The notes beneath the pieces were generated by a model. The model did not search any database and was not told where the DNA came from. It worked only from the letters and a program-made list of their open reading frames with translations. From contig NZ_CP146614.1 of the NCBI RefSeq assembly GCF_037094685.1, forward strand, positions 5,518,001-5,582,000: a stretch of DNA of 64,000 bases, written 5' to 3'. Positions 6,068-11,761 of the stretch are shown one piece after another. The position numbers and the translations under genes were made by a program. Source of the stretch: Massilia sp. METH4 (GTDB lineage Bacteria > Pseudomonadota > Gammaproteobacteria > Burkholderiales > Burkholderiaceae_D). The stretch's first letter is position 1. Every line of letters begins with the position of its first letter.

Positions 6068-6120
6068 GTGTAGGAGTCCAAGCGCCCGCGCGGGGCGGCG
6101 TTGTCATTATATCGACTTAA

Positions 6121-6210
6121 GAACGGCTGACAAAACCTTGTGCTTGTCCTACTGGCAACAACCACGTACACTTTGGCAATACCAACAGCTGCTTTCGGCC
6201 AAGAGTGGTC
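6121..6210 (+). repeat. Degenerate transposon end plus conserved subterminal sequence
   Basis: The first 17 bases, GAACGGCTGACAAAACC, match the inverted end of the IS5-type element at 8730-11151 in 14 of 17 positions and are preceded by TTA(A). The next 70 bases match, with about 12 differences, the sequence just inside that element's right end (11062-11134 read on the minus strand). Both copies lie about 120-130 bp upstream of an inward-reading small gene. This looks like the end of a second, decayed element of the same family. Confidence 0.7.
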
Positions 6211-6253
6211 ATACAAGTTGTATCCAAAAAGTGCGGCCTTGCAAGGAAGTCAA

Positions 6254-6949
6254 TTGAATTTTGCAGAACTTGCTTGTAAGCGAATTGATGCGTCGTGGAT
6301 TAAAACCCACGACTATATTGATTGGGCAAATGATTTGCTTGAAGGCGGTTGCGACGCACCGAGCGTTTGGGAACTTGCTTCATGCCGTTGGGACGTCGAC
6401 GCCGATCCAGACCAAGTGGAACGGCTATTCCAGTCCTGCATATGCGAACTGGGGCTCGAACTACCGAGTGACTGGTACAGCGCTCTGTGTGCTTATTCTG
6501 GTAGCATCTGCGCAAAAATGCTTAAAGGTGAAATGTTGCCGTGGGAGTGCGTGCAAGAAATGCTAACCATTTCCGACGATCACAACGAACCATACATTCA
6601 TTCGATCTGGATCGATCTTGTAGACGACCTTGAAGCATGGAGAACTAATCCCGAGCGTATTCAATTTAACAGGATACTTGCTCTGGGAGATCCGGAAGAA
6701 TGCATTCGGATAGTCGCTCAGCAATTTATTGCCCTCTGCTCCGCATCTCTACCTGAAAAATTTCCGTGGATTTGGCGTTTCGATTTGTGCGAGGCAGTTA
6801 GTGAGGAAAACACCTTCACTAAAGCAAAAACGTGCACATGTACCAGATGTGGCGGTGTCTGTGGGATGAAGAACATGCGGTTTTTCGAACATCGAGACGT
6901 ATTAGTAAAAATGTTCCTCAGCGGCAGGAAGGGCAACCCGCTGCGCTGA
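6254..6949 (+). CDS. Hypothetical protein in accessory island
   Basis: A 231-residue soluble protein without a recognised family. It is Asp/Glu/Trp-rich in its first 150 residues (IDWANDLLEGG, WDVDADPDQVERLF) and has a Cys cluster near the C-terminus (CTCTRCGGVC) that could bind metal. The TTG start was chosen because AGGAAG lies four bases upstream; the frame is open further upstream, but that part translates the 6121-6210 repeat. Codon use is clearly more A/T-rich than in neighbouring genes, a sign of transfer. Small acidic orphan proteins like this are often immunity proteins or parts of toxin systems, but nothing here shows that. Confidence 0.55.
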   Translation: MNFAELACKRIDASWIKTHDYIDWANDLLEGGCDAPSVWELASCRWDVDADPDQVERLFQSCICELGLELPSDWYSALCAYSGSICAKMLKGEMLPWECVQEMLTISDDHNEPYIHSIWIDLVDDLEAWRTNPERIQFNRILALGDPEECIRIVAQQFIALCSASLPEKFPWIWRFDLCEAVSEENTFTKAKTCTCTRCGGVCGMKNMRFFEHRDVLVKMFLSGRKGNPLR

Positions 6950-6952
6950 GCT

Positions 6953-7060
6953 AAGTCCGCTTTGGGGCGGGAGCCGCCTATCGTATCAGCTCCAAAGTTT
7001 TTCAGTTTGGCAACATGGTATGCTAGCTCGACCGGCCGGAATCGGCCAAATCCGGTCTTC
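6953..7060 (+). repeat. Cassette-boundary repeat, copy 1
   Basis: It begins GTCCGCTTTGGGGCGG and continues through GCAACATG and CGGCCGGAATCGGCCAAA. It aligns over about 110 bases with the minus strand of 10575-10690. It follows the gene ending at 6949 by a few bases, just as the other copy follows the gene ending at 10716. See the separate finding on conserved flanks around unrelated genes. Confidence 0.65.
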
Positions 7061-7228
7061 TCGTAACGCTCTGCAGGCTTACCTCGACATCCTTCGGAGG
7101 TGCTGGGGCGTGGGCAAACAATTGAATAAGGACTTCTTTACACAGCCCCGGGCCAAGCGCACCCGACCAAGCTTCTTTCGTGCTGTTCCAGTGGCAACAT
7201 CGTAAGGTCCGCATATCATCATTATAAT
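7061..7228. other. Intergenic stretch without a supported gene
   Basis: No frame here looks like a real protein. A minus-strand frame across 7023-7214 lacks a ribosome site and recognisable motifs. A TATAAT lies directly before the ATG at 7229, too close to serve as a normal -10 for that start codon. Confidence 0.4.
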
Positions 7229-7753
7229 ATGAATGTCATCACAACCACCCGCCGCTTCGTCCTGCGCGAATTCGAACCGCCCGATGCCGACCTATTCGTG
7301 GCCTACCAAACCGCGCCCGACTTTGCGATGTTTCACCTCGCCAGCGAGCGAGGAGAAGACCATGCCCGCCGCGTCTTTCGCCTGTTCCTCGACTGGCAGC
7401 TCGAGCGGCCGCGCGACAATTACCAGCTGGCGATCGCAGCTCTTGAGCGTCCTGCCAACCTGATTGGAAGCTGCGGCATCCGCCAGGAGCGCTGCGCCGA
7501 GGGGGAAGCGGTGTTCGGCATCGAATTGGCACGGTCTTATTGGGGCCGCTTTCGCTATGCGCAAGAGGTTTCGGAGGCGCTTATCAACTGGGCATTCGAT
7601 ACCTTGCAGCTGTCGGCGCTCGTGGCCGACACGGCATTCGAGAATGACGCCGTCGCCCGGCTGGCCGAAGCCTGCGGATTCGTGCGTACCCATGCCGACG
7701 AAAAGCAGTGGTGGCGCCTCGAACGCTCGGCCTGGCACGGTAACATCACCTAG
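7229..7753 (+). CDS. GNAT family N-acetyltransferase (RimJ/RimL-like)
   Basis: A 174-residue cytoplasmic acetyltransferase. The N-terminus TTRRFVLREFEPPDADLF is the typical first strand and helix of RimJ/RimL-type enzymes. The acetyl-CoA region corresponds to FGIELARSYWGRFRYAQEVSEALINW, with the expected IEL and YWG features, followed by LVADTAFENDAVARLAEACGF near the end. The family transfers acetyl groups to protein N-termini or small amines; the substrate is not evident. GC content is near the genome norm, unlike the gene before it. There is no clear ribosome site. It lies inside the accessory island. Confidence 0.82.
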   Translation: MNVITTTRRFVLREFEPPDADLFVAYQTAPDFAMFHLASERGEDHARRVFRLFLDWQLERPRDNYQLAIAALERPANLIGSCGIRQERCAEGEAVFGIELARSYWGRFRYAQEVSEALINWAFDTLQLSALVADTAFENDAVARLAEACGFVRTHADEKQWWRLERSAWHGNIT

Positions 7754-8154
7754 CGCCAAAGCGCCGCCTGGCGTGAAGTCGTGCAATCGCGGGCAAAACG
7801 GTCTGGAGTCTCATGGCTCATTTATCGAAGAAAGAATAGAGGCTTTCTCCAGCAACTGAACGTCCGCAATGAGGCGATAGGGGACATTCACGTGAGCAAC
7901 CGACCATCCATCTAGCGGCGGTCTACCCAATCATGATGAGGAAAGCTCGCGTACCGAAGCACACCGTCCAGAACCTACTAGAATGAGCAAAAGCGTGCTA
8001 TTTCAATCCAAATAGAAGGACCACTTCCCCAATATGCTCTAGCGATATCGCGACGTGATCTCGTTTGCTCTATTTCAAATGAATGGAAGTCTAAAACAAC
8101 CTTATCTCCACTCCACGGCCCAACCTTTTAGATACCTTTAGAGGAGGAGCCGAC
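7754..8154. other. Intergenic stretch without a supported gene
   Basis: About 400 bases with low coding character and stops in all frames. A short segment beginning GAACGTCCGC near 7858 and one near 7915 (TAGCGGCGG) resemble the boundary repeats of the island, suggesting decayed copies. A GAGGAGG ribosome-site-like sequence at the end belongs to the broken gene that follows. Confidence 0.4.
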
Positions 8155-8622
8155 CATGCACTAGGAAGCAATCCAGCCGGTGAATCTGCCCGTCACCGAT
8201 TTTCTGGAACTAGAATTTTATTTGACGGATACACGCCCCGGTGTCAATCCCGAGGTTTTCGTCGCAGAACTGGTAAGCGTTGGCTTACGATAGAGAGCGA
8301 GCGGCTTGCCTTGCGGAAGAGCGGCCCCGCCTTGCGGGCTTTTCAGTGGAAAAACCTGTTTATACCGGACGGTACCAATCTGCAGACCCGATATCGGGAC
8401 ACCGTCGAGCTTGCCAAGGTGTGCGGCGACCGAATCGTTTCGCACGATGGCCTCGTCTTGACACCGTCGCAGTTTGCCAATCGCCACGGCGACGGGCGTA
8501 ACGCCTGGCGCTTCGTGTGGCTGCGATTTCACGGCAAGGAGCAGTGGGTACGCGCCTGTGACTGCCGCGCCCGTATCGATGAGCACCGCAACGGCAGATC
8601 TGCGCAGACTGATCCCGTCTAA
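8155..8622 (+). pseudogene. Broken hypothetical gene (in-frame stop plus frameshift)
   Basis: A ribosome site (GAGGAGG) and ATG are followed at the third codon by TAG. The frame then continues with coherent protein (EAIQPVNLPVTDFLELEFY) to VFVAELV near 8275. There the frame shifts by one base and the coding sense resumes (KRWLTIESERLALRKSG, then FQWKNLFIPDGTNLQTRY) to a stop at 8622. The second part ends with a pattern of PSQFAN and RNAWRFVWLR. The family is not recognised. One stop and one frameshift indicate a decaying gene. It lies just left of the IS5-type element but is not cut by it. Confidence 0.6.
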
Positions 8623-8729
8623 CGCGATCCATAAGCAAATTGCCGGGTGACCGGCATTAGACCAGTCCATGACTTTTGCGGGCAAAATGACCGAATCAGT
8701 TTCTAGACGGGCGATTTTGGCCAGGCTTA

Positions 8730-8746
8730 GAGCGCCTAACAAAACC
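8730..8746 (+). repeat. Left terminal inverted repeat of the IS5-type element
   Basis: GAGCGCCTAACAAAACC, preceded by TTA. It overlaps the stop codon of the transposase, which lies at 8736-8738. It is identical in reverse to 11135-11151. Confidence 0.8.
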
Positions 8747-9539
8747 TCTCAACGTATCTCCAACAGATGAGTGAGCACGCGAGCGAAAGAAAGGCCTGGT
8801 GAATGTCGGCCCTCCGTTCATAACGGATGCGCAGTCTGCGAAAACGGTGCAGCCATCCAAGTGTGCGTTCAACGACCCAACGCCATCGGCCTAGCCTTTC
8901 GCGTGACTCGACGCCGTAACGTGCAATCCGAGCTGAGATTCCTCGCCGGCGCAGCCAGGCCCGATGCGCCCTCGAAGCGTACGCTCGATCAGCATGTAGC
9001 TTACCTGGCCGTTTCCTCGCCCGGCCGGACAGCCCTTTAACAGCTGGGATCGATTCTACGAGAGGGATGAGTAGGCGCGAGTCATGGACCTGAGCGCCAG
9101 TGATTTGAGCTACCAGAGGCAGGCCACGCTGATCGACTAGTAAATGGTGTTTGCAGCCGAGCTTGCCGCGATCGGTCGGATTCCGGCCGGTATGCACGCC
9201 ACCAGCCGGTGCCGGTACGCTCGCTGCATCAATGCAAGCTCGATCCCACATGATCTGGTCATACCCTCGAAGGCGCCGCAGGACTGCCTCATGGACGCGC
9301 TGCCAAACACCGGCTTGCATCCATTGGTGAAGGCGACGCCAGCACGTCATGCCGCTGCCGCACCCAAGCTCACGCGGCAGGTATTCCCAAGGTATTCCAG
9401 TTTTGAGAACAAACAGAATGCCCGTCAGGGCTGCACGATCGTTGATCCGCGGTCGTCCACCTTTCGGCGAGCGACTGTAAGCAGGAAGATGAGCTTCTAT
9501 AAGCGACCAAAGGTCGTCGGGGAGAAGTGCTTGGGCCAT
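8736..9539 (-). CDS. IS5-family transposase
   Basis: A 267-residue DDE transposase in one uninterrupted frame. The N-terminal DNA-binding part (LLPDDLWSLIEAHLP, then GGRPRINDRAALTGILFVL and GIPWEYLPRELGCGSGMTCW) is characteristic of the IS427-type branch. The catalytic residues appear as Asp in CIDAASVPA, Asp in LHADRAYAS and Glu in RWVVERTLGWL. Full length and intact motifs suggest it can still be active. Its stop codon lies in the left inverted repeat. No inverted repeat is found near its start, which is what makes this copy unusual. Confidence 0.93.
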   Translation of the reverse strand: MAQALLPDDLWSLIEAHLPAYSRSPKGGRPRINDRAALTGILFVLKTGIPWEYLPRELGCGSGMTCWRRLHQWMQAGVWQRVHEAVLRRLRGYDQIMWDRACIDAASVPAPAGGVHTGRNPTDRGKLGCKHHLLVDQRGLPLVAQITGAQVHDSRLLIPLVESIPAVKGLSGRARKRPGKLHADRAYASRAHRAWLRRRGISARIARYGVESRERLGRWRWVVERTLGWLHRFRRLRIRYERRADIHQAFLSLACSLICWRYVERFC

Positions 9540-9589
9540 GGCAGCAGTCCGCCGGTGAAAACGGCCGTCATCTTATGCTCAGAACTGCG

Positions 9590-9650
9590 GCCATGTGCGT
9601 CCGCTTCCGCCCCAAAGCTGCCGTTGGCATGCGGACTAAATTACACCCCA
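9590..9650 (-). repeat. Boundary repeat between transposase and first passenger gene
   Basis: Read on the minus strand it contains GTCCGC, then CTTTGGGGCGGAAGCGGAC, so GTCCGC and GCGGAC form short inverted ends. It shares the TTTGGGGCGG core with copies at 6953 and 10575. Confidence 0.5.
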
Positions 9651-10175
9651 CCACATCTGCCGGGTCGCGACGGCTGGCACGAGATCGTCCGCCACCGACG
9701 AAACTGTGTCGAATGAGGCGTTTGCCTCGGCAGGCTTTTTGTCCTGCATTGCGGAATAGCCGGCGGTGCCGCAAACCGATCGCTTGAAGGACTCGAACTC
9801 TCGAAAATCCCAGCAGGCGAACGACCAAGTCCCAGCGGGCAGCACATGCGTAATAACGTCCATGTCCCACCTATAGCAGAGACGCAGCCGTAGTCTATGA
9901 ACTGGGGAGGGCAAGTCACTGTCGCCAGATGGAAGCCGGAGAAGTCTGACCAAGCCAATTTCCAGGCGAGTTCCGCGCCCGTAGTCAGTCACGTCCTCAT
10001 AGCATGCGATCCCATCGCCATTCTCAGCAAGGACGTCAGAAAACCGGATGGTGGTCCAAAACTCTTCCATGGCGTCGAACGCGATTGGCAGAGTTAGGGC
10101 TGAAAGCTTCAGCGACCGAGAGCGGAGGAAAGCTCGAAACTCTTTTTCCACTTGGGAGGAATCTTTTAGAAGCAT
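9636..10175 (-). CDS. Hypothetical protein, passenger gene of IS5-type element
   Basis: A 179-residue frame starting MLLKDSSQVEKEFRAFL with ATG. It has no recognised domain. The first 120 residues have reasonable protein character (FWTTIRFSDVLAENGD, LRLRLCYRWDMDVITHVL, TWSFACWDFREFESF). The last 40 residues run into a boundary repeat and may not belong to the original gene. A copy of its first ~12 codons plus upstream DNA occurs in inverted orientation at 11318-11430, outside the element. Orientation matches the transposase and the other passengers. It may be partly decayed. Confidence 0.45.
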   Translation of the reverse strand: MLLKDSSQVEKEFRAFLRSRSLKLSALTLPIAFDAMEEFWTTIRFSDVLAENGDGIACYEDVTDYGRGTRLEIGLVRLLRLPSGDSDLPSPVHRLRLRLCYRWDMDVITHVLPAGTWSFACWDFREFESFKRSVCGTAGYSAMQDKKPAEANASFDTVSSVADDLVPAVATRQMWWGVI

Positions 10176-10275
10176 CGACTATTTGAAAAAACGAGGCTAA
10201 CTGGCAGTCCACGACCGTCCGCTACTGCCCATCTCGGCCGTTCATTGTACGGCGGCAACCGACCATTGTGTACGA

Positions 10276-10551
10276 TCACACCTCAGCGTCGTAGACTTCT
10301 TTCTCGAGCGCTGCAGTGAGCTTGGCACACAATTTGGTGATCCATCCCCTAAAAAGCAGAGGATCGGTATTTCCAGCGACCAGCAACCCGCTTGGCTCGA
10401 CGGAAGCCCCAATGAAAAACTCGCTGCCCCACGGCCCGAACCAGGTCGAATGCTCTTCAAGCCACCCATCCATTGAACGATATACGGTCGTGACCTTGGC
10501 CCAGTCGGACTCAGAAAGGCCATAAGGCAAATTTAGAGTGATTGACTGCAT
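10276..10551 (-). CDS. Small conserved-looking hypothetical protein, passenger gene
   Basis: A 91-residue soluble protein. It opens with ITLNLPYGLSESDWAKV, has a Trp/Gly-rich centre (DGWLEEHSTWFGPWGSEFF) and ends GWITKLCAKLTAALEKEVYDAE. The composition and even use of codon positions support a real gene. I have a vague impression of similar short proteins in other proteobacteria but cannot name a family. It is separated from the next passenger upstream by a 116-bp imperfect palindrome. Function unknown; single-gene spacing is cassette-like. Confidence 0.65.
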   Translation of the reverse strand: MQSITLNLPYGLSESDWAKVTTVYRSMDGWLEEHSTWFGPWGSEFFIGASVEPSGLLVAGNTDPLLFRGWITKLCAKLTAALEKEVYDAEV

Positions 10552-10574
10552 TCTTGGATGTTCTGGTGTGCGCT

Positions 10575-10690
10575 AGGTCCGCTGTTGGCAGTTCTTGGCC
10601 GAACTCGGCCGTTCGCGACAGGATAGCATGTCGCCGAAGCAGAAAGTCACGGCCTGTCGCGACAGGCAGCTACCGCCCCAAAGCGGACCT
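10575..10690 (-). repeat. Cassette-boundary repeat, copy 2 (imperfect palindrome)
   Basis: The outer nine bases are perfectly inverted: AGGTCCGCT at 10575-10583 and AGCGGACCT at 10682-10690. Inside lies a further inverted motif CTGTCGCGACAG. Read on the minus strand it aligns with 6953-7060. It recalls a recombination site or a REP-like unit, but the GTTRRRY core of integron attC sites is absent. Confidence 0.7.
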
Positions 10691-10715
10691 TCACAATGAT
10701 GGCATGAGAGAGCAG

Positions 10716-11030
10716 CTAGACAATGCGTCCCTCGTTCCGGATAGCTTCATACATGCGCTCTACGTACTTGCGATCCTTCGTATCGGGAAGTAAAACGTCT
10801 ACTTGATGCAGAATAGTCTTCGCATGAGCGCATGAGATTTGAATCGGGTTAACAGCGTAGGGACGTTCGACAATAACAGGCTTTTCGTAGGCAATGGCGT
10901 TGCTTCCCTCTAGGACAACTGGAAGGAGAAGCCAGTAGTACGAACCGTTTGCTCCCTGAAACGAGGCACATAGTGACCCACCGTCTCGAAGCATTTCAAT
11001 GCCATGCGCAAGGGCGATTGATGGAAGCAT
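10716..11030 (-). CDS. Hypothetical protein, passenger gene next to right end
   Basis: A 104-residue protein starting MLPSIALAHGIEMLRDGG. It shows alternating hydrophobic strands (GSYYWLLLPVVLEG), a central segment PVIVERPYAVNPIQIS and a charged C-terminus (DRKYVERMYEAIRNEG). The ATG was chosen with AGGAT just upstream; the frame is open for 30 more codons, but these translate the transposon end repeat. It lies about 120 bp from the right inverted repeat, the same distance as the unrelated gene at 6254 from its own end repeat. No family recognised. Confidence 0.6.
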   Translation of the reverse strand: MLPSIALAHGIEMLRDGGSLCASFQGANGSYYWLLLPVVLEGSNAIAYEKPVIVERPYAVNPIQISCAHAKTILHQVDVLLPDTKDRKYVERMYEAIRNEGRIV

Positions 11031-11061
11031 ATCCTGAATAGACCCTAGAGTTGAAACGAAC

Positions 11062-11151
11062 GTCCGCTTCTGGCCGAAAGCGGCCGGTCGCATTGCCAAA
11101 GTGTACGTGCTTGTTGCCACCAGGACAAGCAGCGGGTTTTGTTAGGCGCTC
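11062..11151 (-). repeat. Right terminal inverted repeat and subterminal sequence
   Basis: The inverted repeat GGTTTTGTTAGGCGCTC (11135-11151) is followed by TTA. The inner 70 bases are repeated with about 83% identity at 6138-6210. The shared inner segment contains CACGTACACTTTGGCAAT in both copies. Confidence 0.8.
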
Positions 11152-11154
11152 TTA

Positions 11155-11761
11155 GAGAACGGCAGTCTATTTTGGACTGGTTTAGTCCGCCCCCACGAAG
11201 GGGACTCCTGTCCCACCTACGGTTCTCCTGCCCCATACATGCCGAGGATCAAACATTGGCTTTGGGCAAAGCGGCCGGTTGTGCCAGTCTGTGTTTTTTG
11301 CGGTTCGGCAGATTACTATGCTCTGGCCAACGGCCGAGATCTCGCAAATCCGTACTATCGTGGACTGCCGGGGCAGCCTCGTTTCTCACTAATAGCTTAT
11401 GCTTTTAAAAGATCCCTCCCAGGTTGAGGGCACCCCGAACTGCGGCGGCACCGCATTGTCACCGAGAAACGATCCCTACCTGGGACTTATGACCAGCGGG
11501 CCGGCATTCACCTCGCCCTCCCTTTGCTTGCCTGCCCTCTCATCTGCCACAGCTGGCCGGACAGGCTTCGTCAACCGCCGCGCGCAAACGATGACGAGGG
11601 GCGTCGCCCCGTTCCTGTAATCCCTCTCTTACACGGGCACGGGATGCCTGCTGCTACTCAGCCCGGCTATGGCACAGCATACTCGTTATACAGATGACAA
11701 CGCTCTTAATAAGAGTCAACGCCTAAGAGACCTTCACAGCCGCCTGGATAAAGAGACAAGA
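11155..11761. other. Region with duplicated fragment but no supported gene
   Basis: Between the transposon end and the cyanophycin operon no frame is convincing. A segment at about 11318-11430 is an inverted, diverged copy of 10145-10250. It includes CGGCCGAGAT, then TCGTGGACTGCC, then GCCTCGTTT, and finally the first codons MLLKDPSQVE of the passenger gene, after which similarity stops. A 62-codon frame at 11239-11427 mostly covers this copy. The remainder probably contains the promoter of the operon starting at 11762. Confidence 0.45.

What the first reader, a model, noticed from the sequence alone, without database searches (positions are those of the whole stretch)
6121..11151. Conserved flanks around unrelated genes: an exchange-like gene cassette system
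Two places share the same order: transposon end plus 70 conserved bases, a gene starting ~120-130 bp inside, then a ~110-bp boundary repeat starting GTCCGCTTTGGGGCGG. The genes between them (6254-6949 and 10716-11030) are unrelated. Further boundary repeats occur at 9590, 10180 and 11318. This resembles gene cassettes swapped between fixed flanks, yet no integrase gene or canonical attC core is visible.
Basis: partly seen in the sequence, partly recalled or inferred. Interest (0 to 1): 0.78.

Follow-up and report, generated by a model that had tools for sequence, protein, structure and literature searches.

The report
Transposon with swappable hairpin-bounded gene cassettes
A small bacterial jumping gene carries other, unrelated genes in a slot with fixed hairpin-like ends, and single genes appear to be swapped or copied between such slots, which resembles an integron's gene collecting but without an integron's enzyme.

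Summary
At 8730-11151 lies a complete IS5-family transposon: perfect terminal inverted repeats, TTA on both sides, a transposase at one end, and before it a conserved 5' module and three passenger genes with boundary repeats. The architecture recurs across Oxalobacteraceae: of 26 passenger-bearing units tabulated, 19 have identical 3-bp flanks. Passengers are mostly unrelated (metal efflux, sulfate permease, NhaA, DapF, EAL/GGDEF, many unknowns). Identity between units falls to chance (0.25) at two hairpin motifs, GTCCGCTTTCGGCCAGAAGCGGAC before and GTCCGCTTTGGGTCGATAGCGGAC after the passengers. One unit holds a 482-bp cassette twice (99.4% identical) with both ends inside hairpins, and one gene occurs in four settings that differ upstream of its leader hairpin. 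No integron integrase passes its cut-off in 12 such genomes, and the repeats show no attC core and no covariation. It is a new variant of the transporter-IS kind, comparable to modular IS231/MIC elements. How genes enter the slot is not shown; general recombination at the hairpins is my best guess, an unknown recombinase is not excluded.

The parts
8730..11151 (-). Whole young unit: IS5-family transposon with passengers, 2422 bp; TTA at 8727-8729 and 11152-11154
8730..8746 (+). Terminal inverted repeat GAGCGCCTAACAAAACC, transposase end
   Evidence: 0 mismatches
11135..11151 (-). Terminal inverted repeat, 5'-module end
   Evidence: 0 mismatches
8736..9539 (-). IS5-family transposase, 267 aa
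   Evidence: Pfam DUF4096 and DDE_Tnp_1; NCBIfam NF033580, 243.6 bits against cut-off 110
9540..9629 (-). Conserved pre-transposase region; trailer hairpin motif at its upstream end
   Evidence: the window's own copy (9590-9630) does not fold better than shuffles (z 0.16)
9636..10175 (-). Passenger gene X, 179 aa, unknown function
   Evidence: 44 relatives in the protein search; no Pfam, NCBIfam or PADLOC family
10216..10241 (-). Leader hairpin motif of gene X (half boundary)
   Evidence: position read by eye
10276..10551 (-). Passenger ORF, 91 aa, unknown function (an overlapping frame 10242-10523 is also open)
10585..10692 (-). Boundary repeat
   Evidence: E 2e-26 (the sequence is among those the model was built from)
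10716..11030 (-). Passenger gene, 104 aa, unknown function
11059..11155 (-). 5' module: inverted repeat, promoter-like TTGTCC (11128-11123), 17 nt, TACACT (11105-11100), leader hairpin
   Evidence: promoter role inferred, not listed by the consensus scan
6118..6212 (+). Decayed 5' module of the older unit
6218..6949 (+). Passenger gene of the older unit (start uncertain: 6140, 6218 or 6254), unknown function
6952..7059 (+). Boundary repeat of the older unit
   Evidence: E 1e-23 (among the model's own sequences)
7229..7753 (+). GNAT acetyltransferase gene of the older unit
   Evidence: Pfam Acetyltransf_3, 2.2e-24
11252..11357 (+). Boundary repeat of the older unit, beyond the nested young unit
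   Evidence: E 2e-18 (among the model's own sequences)
11399..11430 (+). Truncated start of a gene X relative (MLLKDPSQVE)
   Evidence: alignment

Best explanation
This is a family of IS5-type transposons with a modular passenger slot. The transposase moves the whole unit by its inverted repeats into TAA or TTA targets (inferred from identical 3-bp flanks). A conserved 5' module (inverted repeat, promoter-like stretch, leader hairpin) and a conserved 3' end (trailer hairpin, transposase) frame one or several passenger genes; between passengers there is often a boundary repeat of about 108 bp (trailer-like start, probable promoter, leader-like end). The hairpin-to-hairpin stretch is the unit of turnover: genes are gained, lost, duplicated and reshuffled there, most likely by general recombination or template switching at shared hairpin motifs of co-resident units. 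Shown: anatomy, recurrence, sharp slot edges, a duplicated cassette, one gene in several settings. Inferred: transposition, promoter role, mechanism of exchange.
For: Perfect IRs and TTA flanks in the window; IS5 transposase; same architecture in other genomes; identical 3-bp flanks in 19 of 26 passenger-bearing units; 101-bp MITEs with the same IR, 13 of 15 read with identical 3-bp flanks; unrelated passengers; identity drops to 0.25 at the hairpins in 36 units (5' side) and 15 units (3' side); 482-bp cassette duplicated inside L273 with ends in hairpins; gene X in four settings; L139/L132 and L131/L168; modular and plain transposases separate with support 98/96.
Against: No exchange event was observed directly and no enzyme for it was found. 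7 of 26 units lack identical 3-bp flanks. The single empty-site test was negative. Ends of boundaries, and leader with trailer, do not covary; full boundaries fold only slightly better than shuffles (z -1.4 to -2.0) and the window's own trailer not at all (z 0.16). The consensus promoter scan is at chance level. Some slots (L111) hold several genes without a boundary between them. Sharp edges could also reflect selection on control signals.
Confidence: 0.68

Rival explanations
1. A dedicated recombinase, encoded outside the unit, recognises the hairpins as sites and inserts or excises single cassettes, an integron-like system working in trans.
For: Slot edges to within a few bases at a short conserved site; duplicated cassette with both ends inside hairpins; gene X upstream junctions at the hairpin; similar hairpins in 26 of 398 Pseudomonadota genomes, reversed control in 2.
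Against: No recombinase domain among the 30 passengers scanned. Integron integrase model: matches in 12 of 12 genomes, 0 of 12 over its cut-off, and the same below-cut-off signal in 14 of 14 control genomes. No covariation.
Confidence: 0.2
2. The hairpins and boundaries are only conserved control signals (leader, terminator, promoter). Genes are captured by chance breaks and the signals are kept by selection; no exchange takes place at the hairpins.
For: Leader next to a promoter-like stretch; 22 of 24 aligned 5' modules contain TACAC (counted by eye); boundaries carry a TATGCT stretch.
Against: The L273 duplication and the gene X contexts have their ends in the hairpin, not at random places.
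Confidence: 0.2
3. Whole slots are exchanged by homologous recombination in the conserved ends (5' module and transposase), not single cassettes.
For: Some pairs with close transposases have much more distant 5' modules: L129/L271 0.03 against 0.20, L123/L125 0.04 against 0.20.
Against: Does not explain single shared or duplicated cassettes; module and transposase distances correlate overall, r 0.49, 0 of 5000 permutations as high. It may act in addition.
Confidence: 0.25
4. It is an integron array whose integrase is far away or lost.
For: Gene-repeat-gene arrays of unrelated genes; repeat ends GTCCGCTT and AAGCGGAC are inverted.
Against: 0 of 12 genomes over the integrase cut-off; no attC core visible in the boundary alignment; no covariation; the arrays studied begin at an IS5-type end where the 5' end is seen.
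Confidence: 0.02

Closest known systems
Transporter IS (tIS), as defined in passages of PMC3129680 and PMC9330008
   Same: One IS with its two inverted repeats and transposase carries passenger genes unrelated to transposition
   Different: Passenger slot has fixed hairpin edges, boundary repeats between genes, and single-cassette turnover; IS5 family
IS231/MIC231 modular elements (IS4 family; passage of PMC2266710)
   Same: Extra DNA with varied passenger genes between the left inverted repeat and the transposase; modular
   Different: Other IS family; hairpin motifs and boundary repeats, multi-gene arrays. That 2008 passage says this modularity had not yet been seen in other IS families
Integron gene cassettes
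   Same: Arrays of unrelated genes separated by a repeat whose ends are inverted
   Different: No integrase over cut-off, no attC core or fold signal, probable promoter in each boundary, carrier is an IS5-type transposon
Plain IS of Janthinobacterium type (L241, L278, L283)
   Same: Same inverted repeat and related transposase (77-91% in the matched pieces)
   Different: About 0.9 kb, no slot, 5' module or hairpins

Membership tests
IS5 family | Transposase of the family | tested here: met
   NF033580 243.6 bits, cut-off 110
IS5 family | Terminal inverted repeats and short target duplication | tested here: met
   Window unit 0-mismatch IRs, TTA/TTA; 19 of 26 units with identical 3-bp flanks. 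Subgroup not assigned
Transporter IS | Passenger genes unrelated to transposition between the IRs of one IS | tested here: met
Mobile insertion cassette (MIC) | IS ends around passengers without a transposase | tested here: inconclusive
   The genome has eight long 5'-module matches and three near-complete transposases; the far IR of the five transposase-less units was not found in the DNA read
Integron | IntI integrase | tested here: not met
   TIGR02249: 0 of 12 genomes over cut-off
Integron | attC site with R'' and R' core (motif recalled) and conserved fold | tested here: not met
   No such core seen in 21 aligned boundaries, by eye; covariation not above shuffles
REP/RAYT | Hairpins dispersed over the genome, with a RAYT transposase | tested here: not met
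   Y1_Tnp in 11 of 12 genomes but none in G386, which has arrays; in the own genome all 7 zero-mismatch hairpin-pattern hits lie in units (24 further hits with 1 mismatch, control 22 in all)
pdif modules (XerC/XerD) | 28-bp dif-like sites around modules (recalled) | not tested
   Named as an analogy only

The most novel reading that the evidence does not exclude
The hairpins are true exchange sites of an integrase-independent gene-cassette system: a host or trans-acting recombinase moves hairpin-to-hairpin cassettes, many with their own promoter, between IS5-type carriers, which then transpose the collected genes.
Probability: 0.22. Interest if true: 0.88.

Novelty: new variant of a known kind. 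Interest (0 to 1): 0.62.

Why it matters
If right, bacteria have another way, besides integrons and IS231-type modular elements, to collect unrelated genes in a defined slot and move them, here on a common IS type, on chromosomes and on a plasmid. The slot gives a natural list of genes worth carrying in these bacteria, many of unknown function. Because the sites and the carrier are short and well defined, the exchange question can be tested directly.

Tried and rejected
Integron. Long attC-like fold of the boundary: its ends pair in 73.7% of cells against 73.0% with letters dealt anew among sequences. Pairing of leader and trailer across the gene: 267 of 441 positions against a shuffled mean of 263.6; across the boundary 98 of 162 against 100.3. 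REP/RAYT: not required. Empty site of L111: 12 of 74 genomes match, the own genome with both pieces apart and the 11 others with the left flank only. Rfam at gathering scores and ARAGORN: nothing in the window. Defence families: none in 10 passengers at E 0.05. Phage records: no relative of the transposase at E 1e-40. Consensus promoter and terminator scan: 3 against 2.8 and 7 against 5.8 in shuffles. A script count over '61 distinct' 5' modules, and of longest-ORF orientation over 36 units, holds the same unit more than once and is not used.

Literature: seven searches listed no paper that by title or abstract start describes this arrangement; the library lacks most subscription journals, and ISfinder was not available. 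From PMC3129680, PMC7371123, PMC2266710 and PMC9330008 only passages were seen.
Full report
1. What is there. The window is G000:C1:5518001-5582000 of a 6.88-Mb single-contig genome. G027, called 'same genus' by the tool, and the named locus L134 (Pseudoduganella lurida) share contig length and transposase position, so the window very likely comes from that genus. The centre is an IS5-family transposon at 8730-11151 with perfect 17-bp inverted repeats, TTA on both sides and a 267-aa transposase at one end. On the minus strand the order is: 5' module 11155-11059, gene 11030-10716, boundary 10692-10585, ORF 10551-10276, leader hairpin about 10241-10216, gene X 10175-9636, pre-transposase region 9629-9540, transposase 9539-8736.

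2. An older unit around it. A decayed 5' module at 6118-6212 (+) is followed by a gene ending at 6949, a boundary at 6952-7059 and a GNAT gene at 7229-7753. Beyond the young unit follows another plus-strand boundary at 11252-11357 with the truncated start of a gene X relative. I read this as a young unit inserted into an old one; the far end of the old one was not found.

3. The family elsewhere. The genome has three near-complete transposase matches (267, 247 and 249 residues; the third 86% identical), all in passenger-bearing units, plus decayed pieces near 2391697. The 5' module is found at E 1e-9 in 5 of 74 genomes of the genus and in 21 of 392 of a family sample; the transposase at E 1e-70 in 32 of 392. 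A scan of named genomes gave 48 transposase loci, the closest ones in Massilia, Telluria, Pseudoduganella and Herbaspirillum; weaker matches lie in Actinomycetota and others. A plasmid of Massilia putida carries a unit with a sodium:calcium antiporter, a metal/formaldehyde-sensitive repressor, a DUF1289 protein and the CDF transporter DmeF; our 5'-module model did not match there, the pre-transposase model did. Of 69 transposase rows with at least 200 residues (some are one place in two collections, two are other transposases), 9 have an IR 85-86 bp upstream (plain IS), 29 have an IR-like match farther off (388-4778 bp; three with 4 mismatches, in L089, L124 and L272, may be chance), and in 31 none was found in the DNA held.

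4. Transposition signature. Of 30 tabulated rows I set aside 3 plain units and one double entry. Of the remaining 26, 19 have identical 3-bp flanks: 18 TAA or TTA, one CAA; 7 do not. The genome also holds 28 pairs of the IR 60-110 bp apart (coordinates). Of 15 such MITEs read (14 of 101 bp, one of 96), 13 have identical 3-bp flanks.

5. Passengers. ORF lists show different genes in nearly every unit. Of 30 proteins given to Pfam have no family at E 0.01 and one only a match below the family's cut-off; the others include SpoIIAA-like, beta-lactamase family (PF00144), methyltransferase, DapF, sulfate permease, NhaA, hydrolase, EAL/GGDEF, Amj, histidine kinases, aldo-keto reductase, DUF3859, DUF3885 and glyoxalase. 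The passengers of the young unit have no family. Among 185 ORFs from 57 arrays (some units twice, crude ORF calling), only a few pairs are shared between different units, above all SulP 93%, L148/L288 87%, L139/L132 83% and L152/L281 69%.

6. The slot edges. Aligned without gaps on the leader hairpin, 36 units have mean pairwise identity 0.48-0.82 per 10 nt up to about 13 nt after TCGGCC, then 0.29 and 0.25; composition predicts 0.25. Before the transposase, 15 units are at 0.23-0.28 until about -85, then 0.43-0.80. Left out as rearranged or cut: L132, L124b, L123b, L156, L117r on both sides, and L145, L146, L152, L168 on the 3' side. The edges coincide with GTCCGCTTTCGGCCAGAAGCGGAC and GTCCGCTTTGGGTCGATAGCGGAC. 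As 26-nt consensus DNA these fold with z -3.5 and -3.4; the window's own leader has z -1.5, its own trailer 0.16, and four full boundaries -1.4 to -2.0. Boundaries (21 aligned) join a trailer-like start, a middle with TATGCT and a leader-like end.

7. Evidence for turnover between hairpins. (a) L273 holds the same 482 bp twice, 99.4% identical; identity begins at GTCCGC of one hairpin and ends inside the next. (b) The only passenger of L139 recurs inside an array in L132, 83% in protein; nucleotide homology lies between the hairpins, from 10 bp before the start codon to just before the stop. (c) SulP alone in L168, whose transposase is deleted inside; SulP, boundary, NhaA in L131; homology resumes at about the pre-transposase hairpin. 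(d) Gene X stands before the transposase here, after a boundary in the older unit (truncated), after 5' module and boundary in G010, and after a bare leader hairpin in G032. In G010 and G032 homology to the window starts inside that hairpin, 46-55 bp before the start codon, and the DNA before it differs. Gene X matches in 8 of 392 family genomes; of the 7 others I read 5. Distant relatives (35-43%) in G337 and G349 show no hairpin-model hits in the DNA read; a partial match in G091 has boundary-like pieces near it.

8. What is not shown. Boundary ends, and leader with trailer of the same gene, do not covary, so I do not claim an attC-like fold. The promoter reading rests on alignment: 22 of 24 aligned 5' modules contain TACAC (counted by eye); the consensus scan does not list it and is at chance level. 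No recombinase domain was found in the passengers scanned. The one empty-site test was negative. In 21 units, 5'-module and transposase distances correlate (r 0.49, 0 of 5000 permutations as high), but some close pairs differ much more in the module, so whole ends may also be exchanged.

9. Place among known things. Passages of PMC3129680 and PMC9330008 define transporter ISs; PMC2266710 describes passengers between left inverted repeat and transposase and says that this modularity had not been seen in other IS families at that date. The present family meets the transporter-IS definition and works like a modular IS231/MIC element, with hairpin edges and boundary repeats added. In a tree of 32 transposase DNAs (one outgroup), the 24 modular and 7 plain copies lie on two sides of one branch, 98/96, so one origin of the slot is possible. 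Seven paper searches listed nothing on this arrangement.

10. Hairpins elsewhere. The hairpin with up to 2 mismatches occurs in 26 of 398 Pseudomonadota genomes, own included; the reversed control pattern has hits in 2 of 398. In 20 stretches read from 18 of these genomes, only L233 (G091) has full boundary repeats, four of them, and no transposase relative was found in any of the 20. The motif is thus more general than these transposons, which leaves room for the bolder reading.

Noticed in passing
G000:C1, 28 places (loci L009-L030 among them): A family of about 101-bp MITEs shares the inverted repeat and TAA/TTA targets of the transposon; 13 of 15 read have identical 3-bp flanks.
   Followed up: partly
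L220:4022-16443 (G587:C13): Four same-strand hairpins of a similar sequence delimit blocks with a chemoreceptor-like gene and an RND-efflux-like operon in another family; no IS5-type relative there. Gene names by eye.
   Followed up: partly
L233:3021-5247 (G091:C2): Four full boundary repeats in a row on one strand, 0.6-0.8 kb apart, without a full 5' module or transposase in the 9 kb read.
   Followed up: no
L116, L134, L137, L139 and others: Several transposase copies are matched in two overlapping or adjoining frames, either decay or a programmed frameshift.
   Followed up: no
L241 (Janthinobacterium lividum plasmid): A plain copy of the related IS lies beside a HipA-type gene pair; an Imm26 immunity gene is about 7 kb upstream.
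   Followed up: no
L126:7859-9832: The passenger next to the transposase is a 657-aa protein with a beta-lactamase-family (PF00144) domain; its function is not known.
   Followed up: no
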